64,000 nt of DNA from Pseudobutyrivibrio sp. (lineage in GTDB: Bacteria > Bacillota > Clostridia > Lachnospirales > Lachnospiraceae), in NCBI RefSeq assembly GCF_017471675.1, contig NZ_JAFUSK010000068.1, positions 1-64,000 on the forward strand, written 5' to 3'. The position numbers and the translations under genes are program-made. Shown here one piece after another: positions 2,103-22,938 of this stretch. Numbering within the stretch: the stretch's first letter is position 1; each line of letters starts with the position of its first letter. A model generated the notes under the pieces. The model was not told where the DNA came from and ran no database searches. It saw only the letters and a list, made by a program, of their open reading frames with translations.

Positions 2103-2552
2103 ATGGATAACATTAATGTAGAGAACGCAGCTGTCGAGGCAGTAGTTGAAGCACCAATAGATGAGGCAGTAGAGGCAGAGGAGTCAGGAGTAAAGCTTAT
2201 TCCTTTTGAGGAAGAGCCTGTAGACTTTGATACATTCTGCAAGTCAGATTTTAGAGTAGTGAAAGTTAAGGAGTGTATTGCAGTACCAAAGAGCAAGAAG
2301 CTATTGCAGTTCACACTTGATGATGGTACTGGAACAGACAGAACAATTCTTTCAGGTATCCATGCATTTTATGAGCCTGAAGAGCTTGTTGGGAAAACAC
2401 TTCTCGCAATTGTAAATCTTCCACCACGTAACATGATGGGGATTGACTCCTGCGGAATGCTTATGTCAGCAATCCATGAAGAAAATGGCGAAGAGAAGCT
2501 TAACCTTGTGATGCTGAATGATGTAATACCAGCTGGAGCAAAATTAGAATAA
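2103..2552 (+). CDS. Free-standing MetG C-terminal-type tRNA-binding protein (copy 1)
   Basis: The protein has 149 residues. An acidic N-terminal tail of about 40 residues is followed by an EMAP/Trbp111-type OB-fold tRNA-binding domain (SDFRVVKVKECIAVPKSKKLL ... DRTILSGIHAFYEPEELVGK ... AGAKLE). It is closely similar to the two metG fragments at 8465 and 16502, but differs in two ways. It has its own ribosome site (GGAAGGAG) and ATG, and it lacks the FPTMK att-core coding stretch. Family members bind the outside corner of L-shaped tRNA, usually as dimers, alone or joined to MetRS. Here it could supply the domain in trans when metG is split. That role is inference. A terminator follows. Confidence 0.82.
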   Translation: MDNINVENAAVEAVVEAPIDEAVEAEESGVKLIPFEEEPVDFDTFCKSDFRVVKVKECIAVPKSKKLLQFTLDDGTGTDRTILSGIHAFYEPEELVGKTLLAIVNLPPRNMMGIDSCGMLMSAIHEENGEEKLNLVMLNDVIPAGAKLE

Positions 2553-4895: not shown

Positions 4896-5903
4896 ATGGC
4901 AGACAATGAGATAAGAGTTGCAGCAGGCAATTTGATTGAAATTATCAATAAATCAAGAGAAAATGCCTTACGCAAAGTAAATGAAGAACTTATTAATATG
5001 TACTGGCAGGTAGGAGAGTATCTTCATAAAGAGGCTAAGACTGCATCCTTTGGCGATGCCTATATTGATTCAATATCCGAAGAGATTCAATCAGCATTTC
5101 CTGGCATCAAGGGATTTAACAGGCGTGGACTATACAGAATGAAGCAATTTTATGAAACTTATGCTGGAAATGAAATTGTGACACCACTGGTGACACAAAT
5201 TAGCTGGACTAATCATTTGCTGATAATGTCAGGATGTAAGTCGGATGAAGAGCGAGAGTTTTACATCCGCTTATGCATAAAGGAAAATTATTCCAAGAGG
5301 CAGTTACAGAGGCAGCTGGATAGCGGATATTATGAACGTTATATGCTTTCTAAACAGGTTTTGCTTCCTGAAGAGGTTAAGAAGCTTGGTGAGAATCCAT
5401 TTCTCGACTCATATGTCATGGAATTTTTGGATTTGCCTAATGAATTTCATGAAAATGATTTAAGAAAAGCCCTCATACGCAATATGAAAGATTTTATTCT
5501 TGAACTTGGAAAAGACTTTACTTTCATAGACGAAGAATACAGAGTACAAGTCGGAGGAGAGGACTACAGGATTGATTTACTTTTCTTCCATAGAGAATTA
5601 CAGTGCTTGGTAGCAATAGAGCTTAAGGTCGGGAAATTCAAACCTGAATATGTTTCAAAAATGGACTTCTACCTTGAAGCATTGGATAGGCAGGTAAAGA
5701 AGGAAAAAGAAAATCCAAGTGTCGGTCTGCTGTTGTGCGCAACAAAGGATGATGAAGTGGTAGAATACTCAATGAGCAGAACGATGTCACCGATGCTTGT
5801 TGCTGAATACAAATTGAAACTTCCTGATAAGGCGATATTACAAAAGAAATTACAGGAACTTGTAAATATTCCTATGATTGATGATGATTCAAATATAGAA
5901 TAA
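4896..5903 (+). CDS. YhcG/DUF1016-type PDDEXK nuclease
   Basis: The protein has 335 residues. The N-terminal DUF1016 domain (about 1-150) has INMYWQVGEYL, FNRRGLYRMKQFYETY and ISWTNHLLIM. The C-terminal PDDEXK nuclease domain carries YRIDLLFFHRELQCLVAIEL K, that is Asp ... Glu-x-Lys (about residues 226-250). Proteins of this family are common on mobile elements and near restriction systems, and are thought to act on DNA. No partner methylase or specificity gene is adjacent. The ribosome site is AAAGGA before ATG 4896. The gene contains in its own coding sequence a copy related to the upstream palindrome. Confidence 0.85.
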   Translation: MADNEIRVAAGNLIEIINKSRENALRKVNEELINMYWQVGEYLHKEAKTASFGDAYIDSISEEIQSAFPGIKGFNRRGLYRMKQFYETYAGNEIVTPLVTQISWTNHLLIMSGCKSDEEREFYIRLCIKENYSKRQLQRQLDSGYYERYMLSKQVLLPEEVKKLGENPFLDSYVMEFLDLPNEFHENDLRKALIRNMKDFILELGKDFTFIDEEYRVQVGGEDYRIDLLFFHRELQCLVAIELKVGKFKPEYVSKMDFYLEALDRQVKKEKENPSVGLLLCATKDDEVVEYSMSRTMSPMLVAEYKLKLPDKAILQKKLQELVNIPMIDDDSNIE

Positions 5904-7019: not shown

Positions 7020-8255
7020 ATGGCAAAGAGAAGAGATAGCAAAGGAAACATTTTAAAAAGGGGCGAATGTGTTCGCAAAAGTGATGGAAAGTATGTATAT
7101 ACCTTCACAGATCCAATGGGCAGGAGACGTTTTATCTATGCCAATTCGCTGGTAGAGCTTAGAAATAAAGAAACAGAGCTTAAAAGAGACCAGCTTGACG
7201 GATTGGATGCTTATGTCAGAGGATATGCTACCATCAACATGACTTTTGACAGATACATTTCGACCAGAAAAAGCTTACGTGATTCTACCCTCAGTAATTA
7301 CACATATATGTATGACCGCTTTGTGAGAGAATCGTTTGGCTTAAGAAAGATAGCGGATATCAAGTATTCAGATGTGGTGCAGTTTTATCTGTATCTGCTT
7401 GATGAGCTGGATTTAGCACCAGCAACTCTTGATAACATCCACTGTATGTTAAGACCGACATTTGAACTCGCAGTAAGGGATGATATTATTAGGAAAAATC
7501 CCACAGATGGAGTGGTAGCCGATGTGGTTAAGCAATCGGGGAAGAGTAAGGGCGTGAAGAATGCTCTTACCAAAGCTCAACAAAGAGCATTTATGGATTA
7601 CGTGGCAAATCATCCTATCTATAGCCATTGGTGGCCATTGTTCACAGTACTGCTGGGAACAGGCACACGTATAGGAGAGTGCTTAGGTCTCCGCTGGGAG
7701 GATATAGATCTTGAGAAAGGATTTATAGAGATAAATCACTCAGTAGCCTATTATCCAACTAAAGGAACAAGAACCTCAGTATTAAAGGTGCATCTTCCAA
7801 AGACAGAAGCAGGAATAAGAAAGATTCCTATACTGGAGCAGGTAAAAGATGCATTTGAAATGGCAAAAGAAGAGCAGGATGAAGAAGGTATAGAGCAGCC
7901 TTATCTTGATGGCATGACAGGATTTGTTTTTCTGAACAGATTTGGTGACGTTATGAATCCTCAATCTGTAAATCGTGTTATCAAGCGCATTATTTCAAGT
8001 TATAATAATGAAGAGGAGCTTGAAGCCGCCAGAGAGCATAGAGAACCAGTTTATTTACCTAATTTCTCATGCCACATATTGAGACATACATTTGCAACTC
8101 GTCTATGTGAGAAATGTAGTAATCAGAAAGTCATCCAGTCAGTTATGGGTCATAAGGACATCAGAACTACGTTGGAGGTATATGCAGATGCTACTGATGA
8201 GAAGAATAAGGAAATCTTTGAAATGCTCTCGTATGATTTAAACGACCTTTTCTGA
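7020..8255 (+). CDS. Tyrosine integrase of element A (Tn916 type)
   Basis: The protein has 411 residues and the full three-part build. An N-terminal arm-binding domain (about 1-60, RRDSKGNILKRGE ... YTFTDPMGRRRFIYA) is followed by a SAM-like core-binding domain (about 65-165) and a catalytic domain. Catalytic residues are visible: Arg in TRIGECLGLRWED, His-x-x-Arg in CHILRHTFATRLC, His in MGHKDIRTT and Tyr in LEVYADAT. It catalyses site-specific integration and excision. It ends 212 bp before the metG-type core at 8468, its probable crossover site. It is related to, but clearly distinct from, the integrase at 15104. Confidence 0.93.
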   Translation: MAKRRDSKGNILKRGECVRKSDGKYVYTFTDPMGRRRFIYANSLVELRNKETELKRDQLDGLDAYVRGYATINMTFDRYISTRKSLRDSTLSNYTYMYDRFVRESFGLRKIADIKYSDVVQFYLYLLDELDLAPATLDNIHCMLRPTFELAVRDDIIRKNPTDGVVADVVKQSGKSKGVKNALTKAQQRAFMDYVANHPIYSHWWPLFTVLLGTGTRIGECLGLRWEDIDLEKGFIEINHSVAYYPTKGTRTSVLKVHLPKTEAGIRKIPILEQVKDAFEMAKEEQDEEGIEQPYLDGMTGFVFLNRFGDVMNPQSVNRVIKRIISSYNNEEELEAAREHREPVYLPNFSCHILRHTFATRLCEKCSNQKVIQSVMGHKDIRTTLEVYADATDEKNKEIFEMLSYDLNDLF

Positions 8256-8310: not shown

Positions 8311-8464
8311 CGAAGAAAATTGTAACACTGATTACCGAATACAACATTCCTGTAACATTAATTCGAGGAATAAGCGGTAATAAACAGGTATAAAAGCCAG
8401 TTGGTTGGTGAAGCAAAACCCACATAATAAGGGATAATCGGGTATAAGAGGAGTAGATGTACTG

Positions 8465-8953
8465 TTGTTCCCAACAATGAAGAGTCTTGATGCACCAAAG
8501 AAGGAAAATAAGGCTTCTAACGGTGTTGAAGGTCAGTCTTACGACCAATTTACGACTCCTTCAGAGAAAATTGATTTTTCAAATGTAAAGATTGAACCTT
8601 TATTTGAAGAGACAGTAGATTTTGAGACTTTCTCAAAGAGTGATTTTAGAGCAGTAAAGGTTAAGGAATGTGTAGCTGTACCTAAGTCGAAGAAGCTTCT
8701 TCAGTTCACTCTTGATGATGGTACAGGTGTAGATAGAACAATTCTTTCTGGTATTCATTCATTCTATGAACCAGAGGAACTTGTAGGTAAGACACTTATT
8801 GCTATAACAAACCTTCCACCACGTGCTATGATGGGTATCGAGTCTTGCGGAATGTTACTCTCAGCAGTTAACAACTTTAAAGATTCTGATGAGGAAGAAT
8901 TGCATCTTATTATGGTTGATAATCATATCCCAGCAGGGGCAAAATTGTATTAA
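8465..8953 (+). CDS. metG 3' fragment: tRNA-binding domain (copy 2, left end of element B)
   Basis: The reading frame LLFPTMKSLD ... AGAKLY corresponds to the end of a methionyl-tRNA synthetase: the LFPx linker that follows the anticodon-binding domain, a variable linker, then the EMAP/Trbp-type tRNA-binding domain. The catalytic part is missing. As it stands, translation could begin at TTG 8465 (AAGAGGAG eleven bases upstream) or ATG 8477, making a free-standing tRNA-binding protein. In an isolated element B insertion this piece would be joined to the host metG 5' part and restore a full enzyme. The variable linker holds two TTACGAC repeats that match the other end of element B. A terminator follows. 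Confidence 0.8.
   Translation: MFPTMKSLDAPKKENKASNGVEGQSYDQFTTPSEKIDFSNVKIEPLFEETVDFETFSKSDFRAVKVKECVAVPKSKKLLQFTLDDGTGVDRTILSGIHSFYEPEELVGKTLIAITNLPPRAMMGIESCGMLLSAVNNFKDSDEEELHLIMVDNHIPAGAKLY
8468..8482 (+). other. Attachment core at A/B junction (att)
   Basis: TTCCCAACAATGAAG lies at the start of metG fragment 2. It differs by one base from the core at 16493-16507 and encodes FPTMK in both places. It is the probable crossover segment joining element A to element B. Confidence 0.72.
8539..8556 (+). repeat. Left-end arm-type repeats of element B
   Basis: TTACGAC occurs at 8539 and 8550, spaced 11 bp, inside the variable linker of metG fragment 2. The same motif and spacing recur at 16360-16390 near the right end, in the same orientation. 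Confidence 0.65.
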
Positions 8954-8983
8954 AACAAAAAAGAGAACATGCGATAGTGTGAT

Positions 8984-9019
8984 AAAAGCATTGAATCTAC
9001 AATGATTCAGTGCTTTTTT
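8984..9019 (+). terminator. Terminator after metG fragment 2
   Basis: AAAAGCATTGAATC and GATTCAGTGCTTTT pair with one mismatch and end in a T run. Confidence 0.8.
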
Positions 9020-9062
9020 GTTTGTATAAATGAAGTGCCATACAAAGAAGGTTATAAAAGCA

Positions 9063-9092
9063 TTGACAATTTGCGGATAGGGGGGGTATAAT
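9063..9092 (+). promoter_or_regulatory. Consensus promoter of secreted cargo gene
   Basis: TTGACA, an 18-bp spacer ending in seven G, then TATAAT. It lies about 60 bp upstream of the ATG at 9153. Both hexamers are perfect, so strong constitutive expression is expected; the G run is unusual in this AT-rich DNA. Confidence 0.75.
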
Positions 9093-9152
9093 AACGATAT
9101 TGGATTTATGTTTGAAATCTCCGCGAGGGGATGAAAGGTAGGTAACAATTTT

Positions 9153-9989
9153 ATGAAAAAGTTTTTATCAAAAGTATTAACACTTGCTCTCGTATGCGCA
9201 ATTGTTGTAACAAGTACATCAATCACATCTGAAGCAAAGGGTAAAAAGTCTTCAAAGAAGGCTGTAGCTACAACTTATAGTAGCAACGCTGTAGTAAATG
9301 ATTTTGTAGCAACTATGCTCAAGTCTAATGGTTTAACCATCAGCGGAAAGTCTTATAATTCACAGGAATTAATTACTTTAGGTTTTGCTGCAAATCCAGC
9401 TGTAACAGTATCACCTATGTATTGGCAGGACGATGGAATATTCGTTCACGATAACGGTTATGTTGAAAACACTGGCGGTCGTTGCTGTGGTTTTTATTTA
9501 TCGTCTGATGGTATAGGTGGATTCAATCCATATGCTGATTGTTCAGGTACAGAACTGATTTATAATTCAGATATTGCTGAGTATGAATTAGGTGATATGA
9601 AAGCTTATGGTTATACTAATTATGACGATAACGCAATACTTAACAGCAACGGTGTATGGTATACAGACACATTTGTAACAAACGGTGTTAACGCTCAATA
9701 TATTAGTTCTTGGATGCAGTCCCGTGGGCTTAATACAGCAACTGATGTTTATAATTATCTTGTTGCTAACGGTGCTACATTTACAGCAGATGCAGGTCTA
9801 GTAAACACAGGTCGTCTTGGTGCTACTGTACAGTCATTTGGTTGTGTTCAGTGTCCAAATTTATATTATGATATTGATGACCAAGGTACACGCATTCATT
9901 ACACAAATGATAAATTGTCTGGTGTTAATATAGTTGATATCAGTTCATATTCCACATCTACTCTGTGGTGTAGCGCATTACAGCACTAA
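9153..9989 (+). CDS. Secreted protein of unknown function (cargo of element B)
   Basis: The 278-residue protein begins with a classical signal peptide (MKKFLSKVLTLALVCAIVV, cleavage expected near TSEAKG, about residue 29). The mature part is rich in Tyr, Asn, Asp and Ser. It has four clustered cysteines (GGRCCGF, ADCSG) and CVQC near residue 230, plus CSALQH at the C terminus, which suggests disulfides or metal binding outside the cell. No anchor motif or known enzyme motif was seen. It has its own strong promoter and terminator and sits alone between metG fragment 2 and the toxin locus. A role in interaction with neighbours is a guess. Confidence 0.7.
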   Translation: MKKFLSKVLTLALVCAIVVTSTSITSEAKGKKSSKKAVATTYSSNAVVNDFVATMLKSNGLTISGKSYNSQELITLGFAANPAVTVSPMYWQDDGIFVHDNGYVENTGGRCCGFYLSSDGIGGFNPYADCSGTELIYNSDIAEYELGDMKAYGYTNYDDNAILNSNGVWYTDTFVTNGVNAQYISSWMQSRGLNTATDVYNYLVANGATFTADAGLVNTGRLGATVQSFGCVQCPNLYYDIDDQGTRIHYTNDKLSGVNIVDISSYSTSTLWCSALQH

Positions 9990-10003
9990 AATTCAAATTA
10001 CAG

Positions 10004-10032
10004 GCCCGATACGAGATGTATCGGGCTTTTTT
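10004..10032 (+). terminator. Terminator of secreted cargo gene
   Basis: GCCCGATAC and GTATCGGGC form a perfect 9-bp stem with a 5-nt loop, followed by six T. Confidence 0.92.
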
Positions 10033-10255
10033 CTTTTAGTAAACTCACAGATATGTGAGTTTACGTGGGTCATTTATATGCGGTTGGAACACACAAGTTG
10101 ATGAATCCAACCCCAGATGATGAAGAAAAATAGTCATTTGGTTCGATTGGTGTGCACAATTAGAGGGTCATACGCAAGCTCATATATTGATTGACTACTT
10201 CTAATCTATGTGATACATCAAGAGAAAGTACATAATTATTTAACTGCTGAATTAC

Positions 10256-10284
10256 TTGTGGAGATATATTTACAGTGATATACT
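10256..10284 (+). promoter_or_regulatory. Toxin mRNA promoter
   Basis: TTGTGG, a 17-bp spacer, then TATACT. Transcription would begin near 10291, giving an mRNA of about 200 nt to the shared terminator. Confidence 0.65.
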
Positions 10285-10296
10285 AATGGACGTTGC

Positions 10297-10327
10297 CACC
10301 CCTAGACTAGGCATCAGAAAGGGGGTG
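10297..10327 (+). promoter_or_regulatory. Leader hairpin hiding the toxin ribosome site
   Basis: CACCCC (10297-10302) can pair with GGGGTG (10322-10327), which is the ribosome site of the toxin ORF. Hiding the ribosome site in the leader is a hallmark of Fst/par-type toxin mRNAs. Confidence 0.65.
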
Positions 10328-10355
10328 CTTCATTGGAAATTCTTATTTCATTTCT
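10326..10355 (+). repeat. Direct repeat a of the toxin-antitoxin locus
   Basis: TGCTTCATTG (10326-10335, covering the start codon) and ATTTCATTTCT (10345-10355) recur at 10497-10506 and 10518-10528 within the antitoxin RNA region. Because the antitoxin is read on the other strand, the repeat makes it complementary to the toxin start region. Confidence 0.8.
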
Positions 10356-10440
10356 AGTTTCCGTTATGGCAAGTATAACAGCCTATTATATTTGCAAATG
10401 GTTCGACGGCGACGATAATGGCAATGAGCCTAAGGCATAA
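10333..10440 (+). CDS. Type I toxin, 35-residue membrane peptide (Fst/par-like)
   Basis: A TTG start behind GGGGG opens a 35-codon frame. The peptide has a short N terminus (MEILISFLVS), one membrane-spanning helix through VMASITAYYI, then CKWFDGDD and a charged tail ending NEPKA. Size, single helix and polar C-terminal tail match Fst/Ldr-type toxins that damage the membrane. The locus has every expected part: a promoter, a leader hairpin over the ribosome site, a bidirectional terminator, a convergent strong promoter, and direct repeats that make the small RNA complementary to the toxin start. On an integrative element it would stabilise maintenance. The exact peptide family was not identified. 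Confidence 0.78.
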   Translation: MEILISFLVSVMASITAYYICKWFDGDDNGNEPKA

Positions 10441-10465
10441 GCCACCTTGACCAAAATGGCATAGA

Positions 10466-10497
10466 AAAAGCTAGGAGTTGCAGCTCCTAGCTTTTTT
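10466..10497. terminator. Bidirectional terminator of the toxin-antitoxin locus
   Basis: AGCTAGGAG pairs with CTCCTAGCT around a 6-nt loop, with a T run on each strand outside the stem (AAAAA before, TTTTTT after). It can stop both RNAs. Confidence 0.9.
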
Positions 10498-10528
10498 GCT
10501 TCATTGTTGAAACTCTAATTTCATTTCT
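10497..10528 (+). repeat. Direct repeat b of the toxin-antitoxin locus
   Basis: Second copy of the TGCTTCATTG ... ATTTCATTTCT repeat, inside the antitoxin RNA region; spacing between the two blocks is 11 bp here against 9 bp in repeat a. Confidence 0.8.
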
Positions 10529-10539
10529 TGCCTAAGGTT

Positions 10540-10567
10540 ATTATAGCAACTGAATTGGATAAGTCAA
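10540..10567 (-). promoter_or_regulatory. Strong antitoxin promoter
   Basis: On the minus strand: TTGACT, 16-bp spacer, TATAAT. It points toward the toxin gene. It is stronger than the toxin promoter, as expected for excess antitoxin. Confidence 0.78.
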
Positions 10568-10586
10568 TGAATTGTGAATATTTTTA

Positions 10587-11393
10587 TTAGTTAATCGGTT
10601 CGAAAAAATCGTAGTTACGAAGAATTGTTTGATATTTTTCAAGTAATACATAATCTAGAATCATTGAGTTATAATCATCGTCTGAGATATTGAATTTTTG
10701 CTTGTAATCTTTTGATGGCATATCATAAAAGTCGGAAGGGAAATTAGAAACATATTCATAAGCTTCTTTTATAAGAGCAATATTAAGTCGTTTTTCTGTA
10801 ATGGATTCAAATTGCTTTACTAGGGCATACAAGATGTAATGGTCAAGCATGCTAGTGGTAATGTGGGTCTCGTAATCATCAGATGGGATATTATTCATTT
10901 TATTATTTTCAAAGTCCATAATATAAAAATAGGGAATGTAATGCACATTTTTCCATTCTTCAAAAGTTGGTGGAACAACAGAGGGATTGAAATCAGTTAT
11001 GGCGCTTTTAAATAATAAATATTGCTCCTTTAACTCTTCATCAGTAGAATCGGCGAAGAAGTATTGTTTGAAAAGTCTGTCATTAAGTGTTTGTTTATTG
11101 TCGATTTCTTTTTTGTAATTTGTAAGGTGAGCTGATAAGTAGGCATTAATCTTATTCCTAACTTTTGGGCGTTTTTTGCTATTCACATATTTTTCAAGCA
11201 TTTTATCTCTAATGGTTATATATATAAAAATCTCTCGTTCAAAATCCGTTAATTCACTTAGTTTTTTTCCTTTGTGGTATTTGTCTAACTGACGTCTGAT
11301 AAATTCGCTGGCATTTGCAGCTGCAGATGTATCTTTTCGTATTTCATACAAATCAAAGATTTCTGTAAAGTCATTTCTAGGTTTATCACTCAT
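10587..11393 (-). CDS. Unknown protein of element B
   Basis: The 268-residue protein is read opposite to the other element B genes. It is predicted to be mostly helical and soluble, rich in Lys, Asp, Tyr and Asn, with no signal peptide or membrane segment. Stretches such as LTDFEREIFIYITIRDKMLE and ISDDDYNSMILDYVLLEKYQ were not assigned to any family. The ATG at 11393 follows AGGAGGG. Its 5' leader holds two copies of ACGTGTAATT. Its 3' end lies 20 bp before the antitoxin promoter, with no terminator in between, so read-through could add antitoxin RNA. Function unknown. Confidence 0.65.
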   Translation of the reverse strand: MSDKPRNDFTEIFDLYEIRKDTSAAANASEFIRRQLDKYHKGKKLSELTDFEREIFIYITIRDKMLEKYVNSKKRPKVRNKINAYLSAHLTNYKKEIDNKQTLNDRLFKQYFFADSTDEELKEQYLLFKSAITDFNPSVVPPTFEEWKNVHYIPYFYIMDFENNKMNNIPSDDYETHITTSMLDHYILYALVKQFESITEKRLNIALIKEAYEYVSNFPSDFYDMPSKDYKQKFNISDDDYNSMILDYVLLEKYQTILRNYDFFEPIN

Positions 11394-11420
11394 AGTACCC
11401 TCCTAAATGTAATAAATATT

Positions 11421-11455
11421 GAAAACGTGTAATTATTTGAAAAAACGTGTAATTG
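11421..11455. repeat. Two direct repeats AAAACGTGTAATT in divergent intergenic region
   Basis: AAAACGTGTAATT occurs at 11422-11434 and 11442-11454, spaced 20 bp (two helical turns), between the divergent genes 10587 and 11603. It is a candidate operator. Confidence 0.5.
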
Positions 11456-11602
11456 AAAAAACATAGTAATTATAAGGGATAGAGGTGAAATTTTAGTGAA
11501 AAATGTGGAAATGGCAAAACTAATGAAACGTTGGATTATTTACATTATTATAAGCATAATCGATGAGCTCAATGATTAATTTTAAGTAAAGGAGGTGATT
11601 AG

Positions 11603-11839
11603 TTGAAGAAAATTGATTACTATACTCAACCCCTACAAATGGGAGACTTACTTGCTGTGCAAGGAGTAAATTTCGAAGACTATCCTCATTGGAAAGTTGC
11701 AAAGCTTAGGAGAAAGATTGAGAAGTATATGGATTCGGGTACAGCAGAGAAACCGCTTATAGTAAGTCTGAAGACATTTAAGCTTGTCATACAAGGTTCT
11801 GATGAGGCAGCGATACTATTAAACTATATTCCAGAATAA
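11603..11839 (+). CDS. Small unknown protein, first gene of the mobilization operon
   Basis: A TTG start with an excellent ribosome site (AAGGAGGTGATT) gives 78 residues. The protein is soluble and mixed in charge (YTQPLQMGDLLAVQGV, FEDYPHWKVAKLRRKIEKY, ending LLNYIPE). It is not recognised. It is followed after 12 bp by the next gene and appears to be part of one transfer operon with 11852, 12288 and 13640. Small proteins at this place in Tn916-like elements may regulate or help DNA processing, but nothing specific supports that here. Confidence 0.6.
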   Translation: MKKIDYYTQPLQMGDLLAVQGVNFEDYPHWKVAKLRRKIEKYMDSGTAEKPLIVSLKTFKLVIQGSDEAAILLNYIPE

Positions 11840-11851
11840 GGAGGAAATAAT

Positions 11852-12295
11852 ATGTTAGTAAACACATTTTTATATACAAAAACAATCATTAAAGGACAAG
11901 AATTGATAGATGCAATGCATAATCAATTTAGGGTGGTTTCGTGTAGTGACTACACTGATAAGAATGGGAAACTACCTGATGGAAAGCGTCTGACATTGCA
12001 AGTTATGTATGATGATACTGATTATGGTGTGGATAAAAAAACAGGGAAACCACGTGATAATAACGTATATCAGACATTTGATGTAACAGTGTTAAATCGT
12101 AATACAGATTTTGAAAAGGGTGATATTGTAGCATTATATGATTTCGATGAAGAGCATTCATATGCATTTGATTTCAACCTGATACTTAGATTTAGGGACT
12201 GCAAAAAGATACAATCTAAGGTTAGCGCTAAGACAGTGAAAACTGGACAGTCAGTCCCAACAGGTAAAGCTCAAGTAGGAGTGACTAATGTGTAG
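11852..12295 (+). CDS. Unknown conserved-type transfer-operon protein
   Basis: The 147-residue protein begins MLVNTFLYTKTIIKGQELID and contains DGKRLTLQVMYDDTDYGVDK and NVYQTFDVTVLNRNTDFEKG, a beta-rich pattern. It precedes the coupling protein gene and overlaps it by 8 bp, implying translational coupling. Position corresponds to the small YdcP/Orf22-23-type genes upstream of the coupling ATPase in Tn916/ICEBs1, but sequence similarity to them is not evident to me. The ribosome site is AGGAGG. Function unknown. Confidence 0.6.
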   Translation: MLVNTFLYTKTIIKGQELIDAMHNQFRVVSCSDYTDKNGKLPDGKRLTLQVMYDDTDYGVDKKTGKPRDNNVYQTFDVTVLNRNTDFEKGDIVALYDFDEEHSYAFDFNLILRFRDCKKIQSKVSAKTVKTGQSVPTGKAQVGVTNV

Positions 12296-13577
12296 GCGTG
12301 ATGCCACGAGACTAGTGATATTGTTATTCTCAATGGTACTCTTTGTGCTGTGCTACAGCACAAAGAGCATATATAAAGAATATAGCTATTCTGTAATTAA
12401 TGATATATCGATAGTTTCGTTAAGAATAGGGGTAATTGGCTTATTATTTTTGACAATGGAGGTTTTGTTTAGCAACAAGATATATAAGGGGGTGCGATAT
12501 TGTTTTTGGCATATGTATGTTAAGCACTCACTAGAAAGACAGATGATAGATGCTGGAATGTATATACAACGTGGAGAGTATATTGAGGTTCCACGAATCA
12601 GAATTGAATTTGATAAAAATATGCGCGGAGGAACGTTAAAAGTAGAAAACTCGATAAAATTTGATAAAAAGCTAGATGATGTAGTATTGACATCTGCGCT
12701 TAAGAAATTTGTAGTCGAACGTCATTATCTAACAGATGATGGAAATTATTATGTATATGAATTTTTAGATGGCTCAATTAGCTTTAAATTGGATTTTAAA
12801 AGTATTGAAGATTTTAGAGAGTATAATTCCCAGATACCGTTGTATAAGATTTTTCTGGATAAAAGGAGTGTTGTAAATTTGCAACATACTTTGATTGTAG
12901 GCGTAACGGGAAGTGGTAAAACATATTGTTTGTATAATATTTTGTTGCAATTTGTTAACAAACGAAAACCTTACGTGATATATTTTGCTGACCCTAAAGG
13001 AAGTTCGCTAGCTGTACTTGGAAACAAGATAGCGCCAGATAAAACTGCTGTTGACATGGCAGACATTATTGATAAATTGGAAGAATTTGTTTTAGCTATG
13101 CAAAATCGAAAAAAGGAGATAGCAGAATTATTGCGGGGTAAACTAGATGCTGATTATTCTACTTTTAGAAAAACGCCATATATATTTTGTTTCGATGAAT
13201 ATGCAAGTTTTGTCTCTGTTTTAGCAAATGAGGACAAGAAGACTCGTGACAAAGTGAATGCACTTATGTCTGAGGTTATTTTGCAGGGAAGGCAATTAGG
13301 ATTCTTTATGCTTATTATAATGCAAAAATCGGATGCAAATTTAATTAGTACATCGCTTCGAGACAACATTCCATTGAAGCTAGTGCTAGGTAATTCGGAA
13401 CAGCAAACTTATGTGACAGCATTTGGAACAGGTATTGATGTTCCAAATCGACATTATAAAGTTGGTGAGGGTGTATTCACAGAGCCTGTGATCGCACCCA
13501 CACCCAAAATAGTACAATGTCCATCTCTAAAATTTGACATATTGAAGTCATTCAAAATGGCAACCCCCGTGATGTAA
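12288..13577 (+). CDS. FtsK/TcpA-type coupling ATPase
   Basis: The 429-residue protein has two N-terminal membrane helices (about 10-28 and 38-58), then an FtsK-HerA type ATPase. Walker A is VGVTGSGKTYC (about residue 207) and Walker B is PYIFCFDEYASF (about 300); QGRQLGFFMLIIMQKSD is a downstream conserved strand. Such proteins recruit relaxase-bound DNA to a mating pore. Its neighbours (relaxase downstream, oriT-like hairpin at its stop codon) match ConQ/Orf21 in ICEBs1 and Tn916. No pore genes are present, so a helper's pore would be needed. It starts inside the preceding gene (ATGTGTAG). Confidence 0.87.
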   Translation: MCRRDATRLVILLFSMVLFVLCYSTKSIYKEYSYSVINDISIVSLRIGVIGLLFLTMEVLFSNKIYKGVRYCFWHMYVKHSLERQMIDAGMYIQRGEYIEVPRIRIEFDKNMRGGTLKVENSIKFDKKLDDVVLTSALKKFVVERHYLTDDGNYYVYEFLDGSISFKLDFKSIEDFREYNSQIPLYKIFLDKRSVVNLQHTLIVGVTGSGKTYCLYNILLQFVNKRKPYVIYFADPKGSSLAVLGNKIAPDKTAVDMADIIDKLEEFVLAMQNRKKEIAELLRGKLDADYSTFRKTPYIFCFDEYASFVSVLANEDKKTRDKVNALMSEVILQGRQLGFFMLIIMQKSDANLISTSLRDNIPLKLVLGNSEQQTYVTAFGTGIDVPNRHYKVGEGVFTEPVIAPTPKIVQCPSLKFDILKSFKMATPVM

Positions 13578-13589
13578 TCACGGGGGTTG
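13561..13589. other. Candidate oriT: perfect 13-bp hairpin between coupling and relaxase genes
   Basis: CAACCCCCGTGAT and ATCACGGGGGTTG are perfect complements around GTA; the coupling gene's stop codon lies in the loop. No T run follows, so it is not a normal terminator. In Tn916 and ICEBs1 the origin of transfer lies at this same junction, and the ICEBs1 site also has a C-run/G-run inverted repeat. Confidence 0.62.
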
Positions 13590-13639
13590 CAGAAAAAAGG
13601 TGACGAATCTGATGCCCTCAATAGAATGGAGGTGGTTAT

Positions 13640-14818
13640 TTGATTGAGTTTGGTATTGATGAAATTACAGATGTCTTACAATACACAGATAACTGTAATT
13701 TGCTATATGGAGTATATGAATGGAAAGACATTGCCGAATACATGATACATAAATTTGAACGTAATGCAGATTTAGTAGGAGTATTTGGAAATAGAAGCAT
13801 TGAGAGAACAGCGCCAGCTGGATATACAATTGCATATAAATATGGCTGTCATGATTTTTACTTTGCAGTAGCATATCATGAATTTCATATGACAATGGGA
13901 ATAGTTGTGAAATTTTCTGCTAAAGCGCTTGACTTTTATTTGGAGAAAACAGGACTGACGGTCAGTAGTTTTTTGCAAAAAGTATCAGACAGAGAGTATG
14001 ACCAAAGATTATCTAGAATTGATTTGACAGCAGATTTTATTGATGAGCCAATCGATATATCTGAAATATATCAGACGTTGATGGATGAAAGAGTAGCCGT
14101 ATTTAGAAAGCAATTGAATGAATTAAATCATAGAGTAGAATACCGTAAAGTTCCAATGAAATATGAAGGCAGGATAGTTGGTGAGGAAGTAGAGACTATT
14201 TATGTGGGGTCAAATAAATCAAATTCACGATTGCGAATATACAACAAACGAAAAGAACAGATAGCTAATAATGGTAATAAGCTAGAAAAGGCTGTGAAAT
14301 GTAATAGTTGGGTTCGTTTTGAAGGAGTATTTAGAAATGATTATGCACATCAATTATCTGATGAATTATTTAAGATTAAAACCGATGTAGAGCTTTTGGA
14401 GTTAATAGCTTCTACATTGTGCAATAAATATTTTTTTATGAATGTAAATAAAGGTGTGGCGGAAAAACCAACGTTATATACACAGAGAATATTGGATGCT
14501 ATCTCGAACGGAGATTATAGGCTGAGAGCTCCAAGAAATAGAAGCTATGAATTATCTAAGAATATAGCATATATATTTAATGGTTCCGGAGTTATGAGTA
14601 CATTATATAAAATGAAAAAAATATGGGGCATTGAAGCTGTAAATTGGCTTTTATGTTACATTCAAGAATTAATACAAAATAAATATATTGGAAATGCGGA
14701 TTGTAAGTATTGGTTAACTAATAATCTAAAAGACTATCAAATGTACTATCCAGATTTTTCTACATTTGTAGGTGAAAATTTGTCTACTACTATTAAGAAA
14801 GGGGGCGGATGCTTATGA
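13640..14818 (+). CDS. MOBT-family relaxase / Rep_trans initiator
   Basis: The 392-residue protein matches the replication initiation factor (Rep_trans, PF02486) family, which includes Tn916 Orf20 and ICEBs1 NicK. Visible motifs are YDQRLSRIDLTADFID (conserved R-x-D-x-x-x-D strand, about residue 120) and SRLRIYNKRKEQIANN (about 200), holding the family YNK motif with the likely nicking tyrosine. N-terminal helix-turn-helix-like residues (about 1-60) may aid origin binding. It would nick at the 13561 hairpin region and lead transfer or rolling-circle replication. It starts at TTG 13640 behind GGAGGTGG. It overlaps the xis gene by 4 bp. Confidence 0.85.
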   Translation: MIEFGIDEITDVLQYTDNCNLLYGVYEWKDIAEYMIHKFERNADLVGVFGNRSIERTAPAGYTIAYKYGCHDFYFAVAYHEFHMTMGIVVKFSAKALDFYLEKTGLTVSSFLQKVSDREYDQRLSRIDLTADFIDEPIDISEIYQTLMDERVAVFRKQLNELNHRVEYRKVPMKYEGRIVGEEVETIYVGSNKSNSRLRIYNKRKEQIANNGNKLEKAVKCNSWVRFEGVFRNDYAHQLSDELFKIKTDVELLELIASTLCNKYFFMNVNKGVAEKPTLYTQRILDAISNGDYRLRAPRNRSYELSKNIAYIFNGSGVMSTLYKMKKIWGIEAVNWLLCYIQELIQNKYIGNADCKYWLTNNLKDYQMYYPDFSTFVGENLSTTIKKGGGCL

Positions 14819-15012
14819 GGAGTGAGGTATCTATAGCAGAAAAATCAAATCTAACATTAGAAGAGGCAGCTGCTTATTTTAATATTGGCATAAATAAGCT
14901 TAGAGAAATGACTGAATCAAATAGTTGTCCCTTTGTGTTATGGGTAGGTAGTAAAAGGCTTATTAAACGTAAAAAGATGGAGGATTATCTTGATAATACT
15001 TTTTCTGTATAA
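14815..15012 (+). CDS. Excisionase (Xis, Tn916 type) of element B
   Basis: This 65-residue winged-helix protein has LTLEEAAAYFNIGINKLREM, PFVLWVGSKRLIKRKKMEDY and a short tail, the usual Tn916 Xis pattern. An ATG at 14809 is too close to AAAGGGGG, so ATG 14815, overlapping the relaxase stop as ATGA, is preferred. Xis bends the element ends and directs the integrase to excise. It is directly followed by a hairpin and the integrase gene. Translational coupling with the relaxase links excision to mobilization. Confidence 0.87.
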   Translation: MRSEVSIAEKSNLTLEEAAAYFNIGINKLREMTESNSCPFVLWVGSKRLIKRKKMEDYLDNTFSV

Positions 15013-15042
15013 AAGGAGAAGTTTTTTATAGTCATAGACAAG

Positions 15043-15085
15043 GAGGACATGTTTGGTATAATTGAATCCAGCATGTTCTCTTTTT
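15043..15085 (+). terminator. Terminator-like hairpin between xis and int (element B)
   Basis: GAGGACATG pairs with CATGTTCTC (one G-U) and is followed by TTTTTG. Same place and same ACATG core as in element A, suggesting conserved damping of integrase expression. Confidence 0.65.
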
Positions 15086-15103
15086 GTCAGAAAGGAGTAT
15101 TTT

Positions 15104-16357
15104 ATGGCAATTGAGAGACGTAAAGATAATAAAAATAGAGTATTAAAGGAAGGCGAGTATCAGAGACCCAATGGAACCTTCGAATACAAGTGGAGAGATA
15201 GACGAGGAAAAAGACATTCTGTCTATGCAAAAACACTTGATGAATTGAGGGAAAAGGAAATTGATGTTTTAAGGGATGTTCTAGACGGAATAAGAGCGGA
15301 TAAGAACGACCTAATAATTAATGATTTATATCATCGTTGGGTACAGTTAAAAAAGGGATTAAAGGCAAATACATTTCAAAATTATAAGTACATGTATGAA
15401 CAATTTGTTGAACCAGATTTTGGAGAGATGCACATTGTAGATTTGAAACGGTCAGATGTTAGAGCTTTTTATAATAATTTGGCTGATGAACAGCATTTGA
15501 AAGCTAGTACCATTGATACTATCCATACAGTGCTTCACCAAGTGCTAGAAATTGCAGTAGAGGATGATTATCTTAGATATAATCCATCAGATAATGCTCT
15601 TAGAGAATTGAAAAAAGCTCACAATAAAGATTCGGAGAAAAAGAGAGCATTGACTATCTCTGAACAACGATTGTTTGAAGATTTTTTATCTAAACAGGGG
15701 CAATACCATAGATGGTATCCGATATTCACAGTAATGTTATACACTGGTATGAGAGTCGGAGAAGTCACAGGACTTCGTTGGGAGGATATAGACTTAGATG
15801 AAGGTACAATTAGCGTTAATCATACGTTAGTGTATTTTGATAAAGGTGGTTCTGAAAAATGCGGTTTTGCGATTAACACACCTAAAACCAAGGCTGGTGA
15901 AAGAATTATTCCGATGCTACCAAAAGTGAGAGAGGCATTTATAAAGGAGCAAGAATATCAACAAGAATTAGGACTATCTTGTAAAGCTGTGGTTGATGGA
16001 TATACAGATTTTATTTTTATTAATAGATTTGGTAATACTCAGCATCAAGGTACACTGAATAAAGCACTTCGTCGCATAATCCGCGACTGTAATTATGAGG
16101 TCTTGAATAGAAATGAAAAAGGTGATATTATTTTACTTCCGAGGTTTAGTAACCATTCGCTAAGACATACATTTACAACTAGAATGTGTGAGGCGGGAGT
16201 AAATGTTAAAGCCATGCAGGATATATTAGGGCATGCAGATGCAGAGACTACTCTTCAAATCTATGCAGATGCTACGAAAGAGATGAAAAAGGCGGAACTT
16301 ATTAATTTTGAAGATTATTTCAACACTCTAAAGAAAGCTCAGAATGGTACAAACTAA
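15104..16357 (+). CDS. Tyrosine integrase of element B (Tn916 type)
   Basis: The ATG at 15104 follows AAAGGAG and gives 417 residues; the upstream frame runs through the terminator hairpin and is not used. It has an N-terminal arm-binding domain (RRKDNKNRVLKEGEYQ ... KWRDRRGKRHSVYA), a core-binding domain (about 60-165) and a catalytic domain. Catalytic residues lie in GMRVGEVTGLRWEDID, NHSLRHTFTTRMCE, LGHADAETT and LQIYADATKE. It acts on the metG core at 16493 and probably at 8468. Three TTACGACTGA-type repeats begin three bases after its stop, the likely arm sites. Confidence 0.94.
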   Translation: MAIERRKDNKNRVLKEGEYQRPNGTFEYKWRDRRGKRHSVYAKTLDELREKEIDVLRDVLDGIRADKNDLIINDLYHRWVQLKKGLKANTFQNYKYMYEQFVEPDFGEMHIVDLKRSDVRAFYNNLADEQHLKASTIDTIHTVLHQVLEIAVEDDYLRYNPSDNALRELKKAHNKDSEKKRALTISEQRLFEDFLSKQGQYHRWYPIFTVMLYTGMRVGEVTGLRWEDIDLDEGTISVNHTLVYFDKGGSEKCGFAINTPKTKAGERIIPMLPKVREAFIKEQEYQQELGLSCKAVVDGYTDFIFINRFGNTQHQGTLNKALRRIIRDCNYEVLNRNEKGDIILLPRFSNHSLRHTFTTRMCEAGVNVKAMQDILGHADAETTLQIYADATKEMKKAELINFEDYFNTLKKAQNGTN

Positions 16358-16359
16358 AC

Positions 16360-16390
16360 TTACGACTGATATACGACTGATTTACGACTA
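16360..16390 (+). repeat. Right-end arm-type repeats of element B
   Basis: TTACGACTGA (16360), ATACGACTGA (16371) and TTACGACTA (16382) are tandem with 11-bp spacing, right after the integrase gene. The same TTACGAC motif with 11-bp spacing is at 8539-8556 at the opposite end. Confidence 0.75.
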
Positions 16391-16420
16391 TTTATAAAGA
16401 GATATGTAGATTTATAAAAT

Positions 16421-16447
16421 TTGTTTAAATTAGAAACATCGTATAAT
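16421..16447 (+). promoter_or_regulatory. Outward promoter toward metG fragment 3
   Basis: TTGTTT, a 15-bp spacer and a perfect TATAAT lie inside the right end of element B. Transcription would start near 16454 and run through the core into the displaced metG 3' fragment. Confidence 0.45.
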
Positions 16448-16492
16448 AGGGCTATGTAGACTAATAAAGGTTTATAAATAGTTGGAAATAAT

Positions 16493-16507
16493 TTCCCGAC
16501 AATGAAG
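16493..16507 (+). other. Attachment core at right end of element B (attR)
   Basis: TTCCCGACAATGAAG matches the core at 8468 except for one base, and encodes FPTMK at the edge of metG fragment 3. Confidence 0.72.
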
Positions 16508-16960
16508 TCACTTAACCCAGCTAAGGCTTCTCAGTCTGCTGGTGACAACAATGGATTCTTTGCTCCAAACGCTAGCATTGATTTCTCAAACGTTAAGATT
16601 GAGCCATTATTCGAAGAGACAGTTGATTTCGACACATTCTCAAAGAGCGATTTCAGAGCAGTAAAGGTAAAGGCTTGCCAGGCAGTACCTAAGTCAAAGA
16701 AGCTTCTTCAGTTCACACTTGACGATGGTACAGGTACAGACCGTACAATCCTTTCAGGCATTCACGCATTCTACGAGCCAGAGGAGCTTGTTGGAAAGAC
16801 ACTTGTAGCTATTACAAACCTTCCACCAAGACCTATGATGGGAATCGAATCATGCGGTATGCTTCTTAGCGCTGTTAACAATCTTAAGGACAGCGAGGAC
16901 GAGGAGCTTCATCTTCTCATGATTGACAACCACATCCCAGCTGGTGCGAAGTTGTATTAA
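16502..16960 (+). pseudogene. metG: Displaced host metG 3' end (copy 3, tRNA-binding domain)
   Basis: The frame FPTMKSLNPA ... AGAKLY encodes the MetRS C-terminal linker and tRNA-binding domain, without the catalytic domain. Codon choice is that of a highly expressed chromosomal gene (CTT for Leu, few rare codons), unlike the AT-richer copy 2, which supports it being the original host 3' end pushed aside by insertion. Translation could start at ATG 16502, but there is no good ribosome site; a promoter in the element end could transcribe it. A strong terminator follows, as expected for the original metG. It may still make a free-standing tRNA-binding protein of 152 residues. Confidence 0.78.
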
Positions 16961-21018: not shown

Positions 21019-21122
21019 CGCTAGCACTGCTTAAAGAAGCCGAAATGGGCAGTATGGGAGAAGATTTTGACAGTAGCACAGCCAACAAGAATCCTACTGC
21101 ACATGATATCAAGTAGATGAAT

Positions 21123-21209
21123 CAAGTATCTGCATATAAAATAGAGAATTATATGCAGATACTGCTTGAGTATCTGCATATTTTTTTGTATATTATATGC
21201 AGATACTTG
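21123..21209. repeat. Four alternating inverted copies of TATCTGCATAT
   Basis: The outer copies, CAAGTATCTGCATATAA (21123-21139) and TTATATGCAGATACTTG (21193-21209), are perfect 17-bp complements. Two inner copies (21149-21163 and 21168-21181) are also opposite in orientation. The last copy runs into the ribosome site of the truncated Fic-like ORF, so the structure could hide it or act as an operator. Confidence 0.75.
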
Positions 21210-21221
21210 AGGAGGTACAGT

Positions 21222-21311
21222 ATGCATAAATTTGATTATTCATTTTTAGATGAAGGAATGTTGCCTGCTTCACACTTTAAAGTGTTAATGCATTGTATTT
21301 CCTTTGTCTAA
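21222..21311 (+). pseudogene. Truncated Fic-family gene start
   Basis: A 29-codon frame with a good ribosome site (GAGGAGG) begins MHKFDYSFLDEGMLPAS, which matches the usual N terminus of Fic/DUF4172-type proteins, then diverges after HFKVL and stops. The remaining gene, with the HxFx(D/E)GNGR motif, is absent. It is most simply a deletion remnant that kept its promoter region. Confidence 0.5.
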
Positions 21312-21348: not shown

Positions 21349-21385
21349 TATAATACATAGCGCTGTCGCTTGTCGGCAGCGCTAT
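21349..21385 (+). promoter_or_regulatory. -10 element and 5' stem-loop before the permease gene
   Basis: TATAAT (21349-21354) is followed by a 9-bp perfect stem ATAGCGCTG/CAGCGCTAT (21357-21385) that would sit at the very 5' end of the mRNA, a position that can stabilise transcripts. No clear -35 was seen. Confidence 0.45.
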
Positions 21386-21411
21386 ATTGTTTTAAAAGGA
21401 AGTTGAGTAAA

Positions 21412-22938
21412 ATGAAAGAAAAGAAACTAGGACTTATGTCCCTCATTCTGATGATTTTTACATCAGTATATGGGTTTAACAATATCCCACGTTCTTATTA
21501 TTTGATGGGATATGCAGCAATCCCTTGGTTCGTAATTGCCGGAATCCTGTTCTTTATTCCATTTGCATTTATGGTAGCAGAATTTGGTTCAGCATTCCGT
21601 GAAGAGACAGGCGGTATGTACTCTTGGATGGAAAAGTCAGTAGGACCTAAGTATGCATTTATCGGTACATTTATGTGGTATACATCTTATGTGCTTTGGA
21701 TGGTTAATGTATCATCAGGTATCTGGGTTCCAGTATCTAATGTTATTTTTGGTGAAGATAACACAGCTACATGGTCATTATTTGGTTCAGAGCTTTTATC
21801 AGGCTCAAGACTTCTTGGCCTTATGGCAGTAATCTTTTTCATCTTTATCACATACTTTGATTCAAAGGGAATTGATAAGATTAGCAAGGTTACATCTGTT
21901 GGTGGTACAGCAGTGCTTGTAATTAACATTATGGTAGTTGTTGGTTCAATTGTTATGATTATCGCAAGACATGGTCAGCTAGAGCAGCCATTCCTTGGTA
22001 GAGAATCCCTTGAGGTTCCACTTAACGTGGCATACCAGGGCAACCCAATTATGATTTTGTCATTTATTGTATATGCACTTTTTGCTTACGGCGGAATTGA
22101 GGCTGTTGGTGGTCTTGTTGACAAGACAGAGAATCCTAAGAAGACATTCCCTAAGGCAATTGTTTCAGCAGCACTTGTAATCGTTGTTGGATATGCACTT
22201 TTGATTCTTCTTGTAGGTTCATTTACAAACTACAGTGAAATCCTTGGTGAAGATAACATCACACTTGGTAACGTATCTTATGTAATTATGTCAAACTTTG
22301 CAGCAGCATTTGGTAAGGCATTTGGTGCAACAGAGGCTACACAGATTGCACTTGCTCATGGATTTGCAAGAGTTTACGCACTTATCATGCTTCTTGCACT
22401 TATGGGTGCAATGTTTACACTTGTTTATTCACCACTTAAGCAGATTATCGATGGAACTGAAAAAGAGCTTTGGCCAGGCAAGATGGGTGAGATTGAAGCC
22501 GATGGTATGCCAAAGAACGCTATGTGGATTCAGTGCGCAATTGTATGTGTAATGATTCTTCTTGTTTCATTCGGTGGAGATACAATGCAGCAGTTCTTCG
22601 TAATACTTACTGCAATGGTAAATGTTGGAATGACAGTTCCTTATATGTTCATTTCATTTGCATTCCCTAAGTTTAAGAAGATGAAGGGTGTAGATAGAAG
22701 CTTTGAAGTTTACAAGTCTCAGAAATCAGCAAACTTCTGGGGATATGTTGTTACACTTACACTTTTATTTGCAAATGTATTTGCAATTATCCAGCCAGCA
22801 CTTGATGGAGATTTCAAGACAACATTCTGGTCACTTAGTGGACCTGTTATCTTTGGGTTAGCTGCATGGATTATTTATACACGCTACGAGAAGAAAAAGA
22901 AGGTAAAGTCTAAAGATTCTGTGAAATCAGTTGCGTAA
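21412..22938 (+). CDS. yjeM: APC-family amino acid permease (YjeM-like)
   Basis: ATG 21412 behind AAAGGAAG gives 508 residues with about 12 membrane helices. The N terminus (KLGLMSLILMIFTSVYGFNN IPRSYYLMG) and EETGGMYSWMEKSVGPKYAF are typical for the glutamate:GABA antiporter branch of the APC family and especially YjeM. It would exchange or import an amino acid across the membrane. The strong bias to CTT, GCA and ACA codons suggests high expression. It seems to be a single gene with its own promoter. Substrate not known; symbol by similarity only. Confidence 0.82.
   Translation: MKEKKLGLMSLILMIFTSVYGFNNIPRSYYLMGYAAIPWFVIAGILFFIPFAFMVAEFGSAFREETGGMYSWMEKSVGPKYAFIGTFMWYTSYVLWMVNVSSGIWVPVSNVIFGEDNTATWSLFGSELLSGSRLLGLMAVIFFIFITYFDSKGIDKISKVTSVGGTAVLVINIMVVVGSIVMIIARHGQLEQPFLGRESLEVPLNVAYQGNPIMILSFIVYALFAYGGIEAVGGLVDKTENPKKTFPKAIVSAALVIVVGYALLILLVGSFTNYSEILGEDNITLGNVSYVIMSNFAAAFGKAFGATEATQIALAHGFARVYALIMLLALMGAMFTLVYSPLKQIIDGTEKELWPGKMGEIEADGMPKNAMWIQCAIVCVMILLVSFGGDTMQQFFVILTAMVNVGMTVPYMFISFAFPKFKKMKGVDRSFEVYKSQKSANFWGYVVTLTLLFANVFAIIQPALDGDFKTTFWSLSGPVIFGLAAWIIYTRYEKKKKVKSKDSVKSVA

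What the first reader, a model, noticed from the sequence alone, without database searches (positions are those of the whole stretch)
8465..16960. Serial integrative elements target metG and carry their own metG 3' end
Three copies of the MetRS tRNA-binding domain lie within 15 kb. Copies 2 and 3 each follow a tyrosine integrase and each begin at a near-identical 15-bp core coding FPTMK, the linker start of MetRS. The simplest model: each element inserts in metG, joins its own metG 3' end to the host 5' part and pushes the old 3' end to its far side. Here two such elements are stacked, so copy 2 is the left end of element B and copy 3 the original host end. Gene-restoring insertion is known for other genes; I know of no account for metG, so it may be new.
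Basis: partly seen in the sequence, partly recalled or inferred. Interest (0 to 1): 0.87.

Follow-up and report, generated by a model that had tools for sequence, protein, structure and literature searches.

The report
Mobile elements reshaping lysyl-tRNA synthetase gene
Mobile DNA elements in gut and rumen bacteria insert into the gene for lysyl-tRNA synthetase just before its last domain, and so swap, remove or perhaps separately supply that tRNA-binding domain of an essential enzyme.

Summary
The three domain copies and the two integrase-core junctions are real, but the target is lysS, not metG. metG is intact on another contig and lacks the core. In 21 of 28 congeners the copy-3 type tail is the C-terminus of a lysyl-tRNA synthetase (LysRS) reading ...RDVLLFPTMK+tail. 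The core equals the published 13-bp repeat of vanD islands in enterococcal lysS (PMC8301612).

Copy 3 is the host's tail. Copy 2 is the left end of element B (8468-16492; Rep_trans, FtsK-like, Tn916-type Xis, integrase). Copy 1 is a free-standing tRNA-binding gene, probably on element A.

In relatives, some elements swap the tail (P. xylanivorans DSM 14809), with integrase arm-like repeats inside coding linker. Others end LysRS a few codons after the core; some of these genomes also hold a free-standing tail gene (L. multipara LB2003, C7, E. ramulus 21). Arm-like repeats follow the core in 33 of 56 tail-less lysS loci, against 0-2 of 45-53 in control windows.

The window's own lysS 5' part was not found. 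Supply of the tail in trans, the class of element A, and excision are inferred.

The parts
2103..2552 (+). Copy 1: free-standing tRNA-binding gene (149 aa), own ribosome-binding site and ATG, no core; probably cargo of element A
   Evidence: groups with free-standing copies of G006 and strain C7 (99/97)
4896..5903 (+). YhcG-type PDDEXK nuclease (DUF1016), cargo between copy 1 and integrase A
   Evidence: Pfam
7020..8255 (+). Tyrosine integrase of element A, with Tn916-type arm-binding domain
   Evidence: Pfam
8456..8482 (+). Core at the junction of element A and element B; lysS-like DNA begins at 8456
8468..8953 (+). Copy 2: LysRS tail carried as the left end of element B
   Evidence: same type as the fused tails of DSM 14809 and G003 (that clade is weak, 58/69)
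8538..8558 (+). Left arm-like direct repeats (TTACGAC) inside the linker codons of copy 2
12288..13577 (+). FtsK/SpoIIIE-like protein of element B
   Evidence: Pfam
13640..14818 (+). Rep_trans family (replication initiation factor) protein of element B
   Evidence: Pfam
14809..15012 (+). Excisionase of Tn916-Xis family, element B
15104..16357 (+). Tyrosine integrase of element B; 76% identical to the integrase of the DSM 14809 element
16360..16392 (+). Right arm-like direct repeats (TTACGAC) of element B
16493..16507 (+). Core at the junction of element B and the host tail
16493..16960 (+). Copy 3: the host's own LysRS tail, displaced
   Evidence: 100% protein identity over 155 aa to fused LysRS tails of G016 and G025; tree 99/95
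21370..22938 (+). Amino acid permease gene, chromosomal flank that directly follows intact lysS in five relatives

Best explanation
Tyrosine-recombinase integrative elements insert at a 13-15 bp core (TTCCC[A/G]ACAATGAAG) in lysS, at the end of the LysRS catalytic domain. In many Lachnospiraceae LysRS continues for another ~155 aa as a MetRS-beta-like tRNA-binding domain, so insertion separates that domain from the enzyme and the element's own end decides what the enzyme ends with. Swap elements (B here) bring a whole tail, with integrase arm-like repeats inside its linker codons. Truncating elements end LysRS a few codons after the core; some of these genomes carry a free-standing tail gene that may act in trans (probably element A with copy 1). 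The host's tail ends up behind the integrase. In the window the order is A, then B beginning with copy 2, then copy 3. Shown by sequence comparison: target, core junctions, swap, truncation, stacking in relatives. Inferred: the class of element A, action in trans, excision of these elements.
For: Target. Junctions: homology of the window to intact lysS starts exactly at 16493. In DSM 14809 two stretches match intact relatives, one running through lysS and its tail and one beginning at the displaced core. The displaced tail of DSM 14809 groups with the fused tails of its catalytic-domain relatives (100/99), its fused tail does not. LB2003 has truncated LysRS, a free-standing tail gene about 5 kb on and the displaced tail 53 kb on. 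An extra tail lies downstream of lysS on the same strand in 22 of 22 genomes with both on one contig. An integrase lies within 1.2 kb upstream of 22 of 28 displaced core-bearing tails inspected. DSM 14809 shares 19 exact bases between left and right ends. Repeats follow the core in 33 of 56 tail-less loci against 0-2 of 45-53 in controls. The tail's tree conflicts with the catalytic tree far more than equal catalytic segments do. Element B encodes a Tn916-type excisionase.
Against: The window's own lysS 5' part was not found. No integrase was found upstream of 6 of 28 displaced tails (only two integrase queries used). 23 of 56 tail-less loci show no repeats, so some may be tail-less for other reasons. 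7 of 12 left/right pairings share no convincing arm repeat. The clade that ties copy 2 to DSM 14809 and G003 is weak (58/69). Free-standing copies in genomes without a fused tail (6 of 6) are not beyond chance (about 0.07), and G290 has a fused LysRS plus a tail fragment without core or clear start.
Confidence: 0.87

Rival explanations
1. The elements target metG and carry metG 3' ends.
For: The domain is homologous to the MetRS beta domain.
Against: metG is intact on another contig without the core. The tail sits on LysRS in relatives, while the MetRS tails of the same genomes are only about 40% identical to it.
Confidence: 0.01
2. The copies are ordinary duplicated stand-alone tRNA-binding genes, spread by homologous recombination or duplication without integrase action.
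For: Copy 1 and its relatives are real free-standing genes with ribosome-binding sites. Tail remnants without integrase lie near lysS in G003, AD2017 and NK4A144.
Against: Homology breaks exactly at the core; integrases lie beside 22 of 28 displaced tails; end repeats.
Confidence: 0.05
3. Tail-less LysRS is the native state in much of the family and the repeats behind it are unrelated; elements only occasionally insert there. Free-standing copies are cargo without any link to LysRS.
For: About 64% of the 298 matched family genomes show no fused tail (hand count). 23 of 56 tail-less loci lack the repeats. The association of free-standing copies with tail-less LysRS is not significant.
Against: Repeats at a fixed distance from the core in 33 of 56 against 0-2 of 45-53 in controls, matching right-end repeats in G150, bin.43 and E. 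ramulus. LB2003 is truncated where ATCC 19207 of the same named species is not.
Confidence: 0.3

Closest known systems
vanD genomic islands Tn6711-Tn6713 in Enterococcus lysS (PMC8301612; passages and section 22 seen)
   Same: Same 13-bp core (TTCCCAACAATGA / TTCCCGACAATGA), same gene, integrase-mediated, part of the sequence close to Blautia; Tn6711 and Tn6713 circularise.
   Different: There the repeat lies 17 bp from the gene's end, so only a few codons can change. Here a ~155-aa domain follows the core and is swapped or lost. I did not have the island sequences.
Streptococcus ICEs in the 3' end of lysS (PMC4701971, PMC7168690; passages seen)
   Same: Tyrosine integrase, 13-17 bp repeats at the 3' end of lysS.
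   Different: Authors describe very little change to the protein's end; no domain exchange, no free-standing tail gene mentioned in the passages seen.
Tn916-family integration module
   Same: Integrases with PF02920 arm-binding domain, Tn916-Xis family excisionase, short direct repeats near both ends.
   Different: Tn916 itself has low site specificity (PMC4701971 passage); these are site-specific, and one arm lies inside codons.
Free-standing Trbp111 / MetRS beta proteins
   Same: Copy 1 matches solved MetRS-beta and Trbp111 chains.
   Different: Nearest relatives are LysRS tails; in LB2003 it lies among ParA, ParB, relaxase and secretion ATPase genes.

Membership tests
lysS-targeting tyrosine-integrase elements | Integrated in lysS at a short core repeated on both sides | tested here: met
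   Right junctions in the window; both junctions in DSM 14809, LB2003, C7. The left junction of the window itself is not in the assembly.
lysS-targeting tyrosine-integrase elements | Tyrosine integrase next to one core | tested here: met
   Window 2 of 2; 22 of 28 inspected relatives
lysS-targeting tyrosine-integrase elements | Excises as a circle | not testable with these tools
   No circle seen; L134 is a linear record. Published for Tn6711 and Tn6713.
Tn916-type integration module | Integrase_DNA domain plus Tn916-Xis excisionase | tested here: met
   Element B. Excisionase of element A not looked for.
Integrative and conjugative element (ICE) | Complete conjugation module | tested here: inconclusive
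   Element B (8 kb) shows only FtsK-like and Rep_trans proteins among the ORFs tested by Pfam, so it is at most mobilizable-size. Element A is cut by the contig end.
metG-targeting element | Host metG interrupted at the core | tested here: not met
   metG intact, no core
Gene-restoring insertion | Element end restores a full-length product | tested here: met
   Swap elements: DSM 14809 LysRS keeps a full tail. Truncating elements do not restore it.

The most novel reading that the evidence does not exclude
In Lachnospiraceae the C-terminal tRNA-binding domain of LysRS is in the hands of integrative elements: they swap it, delete it, or split the synthetase into two proteins by supplying the domain in trans, so that its patchy presence across the family mostly records element traffic at one core in lysS.
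Probability: 0.5. Interest if true: 0.78.

Novelty: new variant of a known kind. Interest (0 to 1): 0.62.

Why it matters
Integrative elements are thought to choose sites where insertion changes little (so argued for streptococcal ICEs in PMC4701971, passage). Here the site lies before a whole domain of an essential enzyme and insertion changes its architecture. That gives natural sets of tailed, tail-swapped, tail-less and perhaps split LysRS among close relatives, so what an appended tRNA-binding domain does can be tested directly. It shows arm-like integrase sites overlapping protein-coding codons, and it points to gut Lachnospiraceae as a place where the lysS specificity of the enterococcal vanD islands may come from.

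Tried and rejected
metG as target: rejected. LysRS in this strain replaced by a class I enzyme: not supported, only a weak hit at the start of metG. lysS 5' part elsewhere in the assembly: not found; its usual left flank gave no DNA match either, but that search had no positive control. IMG/VR contigs: no stretch matched the tail patterns. Excised circles among phage records: L134-L137 are linear records without terminal repeats; L134 holds only an integrase and a tail. Plasmid records: LysRS-type tails only in three records (60-80% identity), one of them L138, a Collinsella record with an annotated lysS. Rfam on the window: no match. Free-standing copies with tail-less LysRS: 6 of 6, base rate about 0.64, so not significant. 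Repeats in the linkers of fused tails: 5 of 23 and 3 of 68 reach 9 of 11; by eye only L235, L255 and L090 resemble arm sites, while copy 2 and DSM 14809 score only 8. In one search two positives (L320, L322) lie at +48 and may be something else. Paper searches found nothing; others gave listings of which I opened three papers.

Full report
WHAT IS THERE. The window is bases 1-64000 of contig C40 of a 3.1 Mb genome in 92 contigs; close named relatives are Pseudobutyrivibrio. Three tRNA_bind copies lie at 2103-2552, 8465-8953 and 16490-16960. Copies 2 and 3 each follow a tyrosine integrase with a Tn916-type arm-binding domain and begin at TTCCC[A/G]ACAATGAAG. Copy 1 has its own ribosome-binding site and ATG and no core.

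THE TARGET IS lysS. The genome has an intact metG on C68 whose linker lacks the core. Copy 3 is identical over 155 aa to the end of a 677-codon frame in G016 and G025. In L048 this gene reads ...AIRDVLLFPTMKSLNPAK... and matches lysine-tRNA ligase models far above their cut-offs (TIGR00499, 652 bits). Of 28 congeners, 21 show LysRS with the full tail, six show a shorter stretch (one, G024, ends FPTMKSVKD and stops; the others may be cut by contig ends, which I did not check for each), and one (G006) shows no catalytic part. In the window's own genome the LysRS catalytic part was not found, nor a class I LysRS. The contig starts at window base 1, so the left end of the locus cannot be seen.

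COPY 3 IS THE HOST'S TAIL. Homology of the window to intact lysS of relatives starts at the core, 16493. Copy 3 groups with the fused tails of SIG312, SIG311 and MD2005 (99/95). The amino acid permease gene at 21370-22938 directly follows intact lysS in L052, L054, L056, L057 and L059.

A COMPLETE SWAP IN AN ISOLATE. P. xylanivorans DSM 14809 (L067) has LysRS with a tail up to 1987, then about 8 kb with a DNA methylase, a Viral_Rep protein and an integrase 76% identical to the window's integrase B, then a displaced tail at 10001-10468. Against sp. 49, CF1b and YE44 one stretch of homology runs through lysS and its tail, and a second begins exactly at the displaced core. The displaced tail groups with YE44 and sp. 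49 (100/99); the fused tail falls outside the native clade beside copy 2 and the G003 tail, though that small clade is weak (58/69). In the catalytic tree DSM 14809 lies with CF1b and sp. 49 and G003 with YE44 (99/98; bootstraps of this tree had not fully settled); holding DSM 14809 and G003 together is rejected (p-AU 2.4e-5). So their shared tail type came separately from the rest of the gene.

TAILS MOVE INDEPENDENTLY. Fitting the tail to the tree of the catalytic part costs 877 log units for 77 LysRS, against 208-292 for three catalytic segments of equal length. Most of the 77 had been chosen by tail similarity, so I repeated it with 16 rows, 15 of them from the even family sample: 159 against 33-70. 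Each segment rejects the other tree, so the size of the difference is the evidence, not the p-value.

TRUNCATING ELEMENTS. L. multipara LB2003 has LysRS of 552 aa ending FPTLKSQNTSSTPNGSQK. A free-standing 142 aa tail gene lies about 5 kb on, among ParA, ParB, relaxase and secretion-ATPase genes. The displaced native tail lies 53 kb on, behind an integrase. ATCC 19207, of the same named species, has the tail fused; the displaced LB2003 tail is 96.8% identical to it in DNA, and the left homology ends 23 bases after the point, the core's first base, where the right one begins. Strain C7 and E. ramulus 21 also have truncated LysRS, a free-standing copy and a displaced tail, in E. ramulus on separate contigs. 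G149, filed under another genus number, has truncated LysRS and, about 5 kb on, the LB2003 free-standing protein with one residue changed. G204 and G284 have free-standing copies and no fused tail in the listing. That makes 6 of 6 with visible status, but about 64% of the matched genomes lack a fused tail, so this is only suggestive (0.64^6 = 0.07). G290 has a fused LysRS plus a tail fragment without core or clear start. Copy 1 belongs to the free-standing group (99/97 with G006 and C7). That element A is of the truncating class is inference.

HOW COMMON. Of 327 family genomes, 298 matched; by my hand count 108 have a fused tail and 35 listed genomes, besides the window's own, have a tail outside a long frame, two of these (G101, G279) at a contig edge (the listing was cut, so 35 is a lower bound for the listed kind). 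In 22 of 22 genomes where I could place lysS and an extra tail or tail remnant on one contig, the extra one lies downstream on the same strand (G025; L078; G061, G062, G066; G003, G008; G149, G150; G033, G121, G148, G187, G192, G211, G249, G282, G290, G311, G333, G379, G388; a fragment 530 kb away in G290 not counted). An integrase homologue lies within 1.2 kb upstream of 22 of 28 core-bearing displaced tails inspected (12 of these loci were picked because lysS was on the same contig or a copy looked free-standing) and of 2 of 2 in the window. Two displaced tails in a row occur in ACC2 and G187.

ARM-LIKE REPEATS. In DSM 14809 the linker of the fused tail, 70 bp after the core, shares 19 exact bases (ATTGCGACCAGAATGCGAC) with the right end, 136 bp before the displaced core. 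Element B has TTACGAC repeats at corresponding places (10 shared bases, weak by itself). G150, bin.43 and E. ramulus share 13-14 bases, in non-coding DNA after a truncated lysS. The other 7 of 12 pairings show nothing convincing: none in G033, three ACC2 pairings and STE_209, only AT-rich 9-11-mers in LB2003 and C7. In tail-less lysS loci, tandem repeats of period 10-12 with at least 9 of 11 matches lie at +48..+92 after the core in 33 of 56, against 2 of 53, 1 of 51, 2 of 46 and 0 of 45 in four control windows and 1.75% in shuffles. Without four loci that I had added because they were known or suspected cases it is 30 of 52. So many tail-less LysRS genes of this family seem to be joined to an element end or its relic; 23 of 56 are not explained this way. 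Right ends reach the threshold in 22 of 29, with a shuffled rate of 9% per stretch.

LITERATURE. lysS is a known ICE target in Streptococcus (PMC4701971 and PMC7168690, passages). The same 13-bp core is that of the vanD islands in Enterococcus, two of which circularise (PMC8301612, passages and section 22). Searches for the domain exchange, or for such elements in Lachnospiraceae, found no account; the library is open-access only, and beyond these three papers I saw listings only. That e14-like phages replace the end of icd is recalled; one search gave only a listing.

VERDICT. The kind is known; the variant, exchange or removal of a whole synthetase domain, appears new.

Noticed in passing
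window 21059-21269: A ~210-bp stretch with an internal inverted repeat is 95-99% identical near lysS in several Pseudobutyrivibrio species whose coding DNA nearby is 80-95% identical; it looks like a small mobile repeat. No Rfam match.
   Followed up: partly
L067:7297-8295: The DSM 14809 element carries a protein with Viral_Rep (PF02407) and RNA_helicase (PF00910) domains, as in small single-stranded DNA viruses.
   Followed up: no
tail-less lysS loci, e.g. L277, L278, L303, L267: A motif like CCAGTAAAATCAAGGGTTT or CCAGTATTTATGCGGGTTT follows the stop codon of truncated lysS in many genera (23 of 58 rows by a rough pattern); perhaps a terminator at the element end.
   Followed up: no
L138 (Collinsella record NZ_OY725717.1): An annotated actinobacterial lysS has a catalytic part only 50% but a tail 73% identical to the Pseudobutyrivibrio ones, hinting at transfer of the tail between phyla; the record may be misassigned.
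   Followed up: no
G000 and G006: Both genomes with a close copy-1 type gene lack the LysRS catalytic part in their assemblies, though they are 98% and 95% complete.
   Followed up: partly
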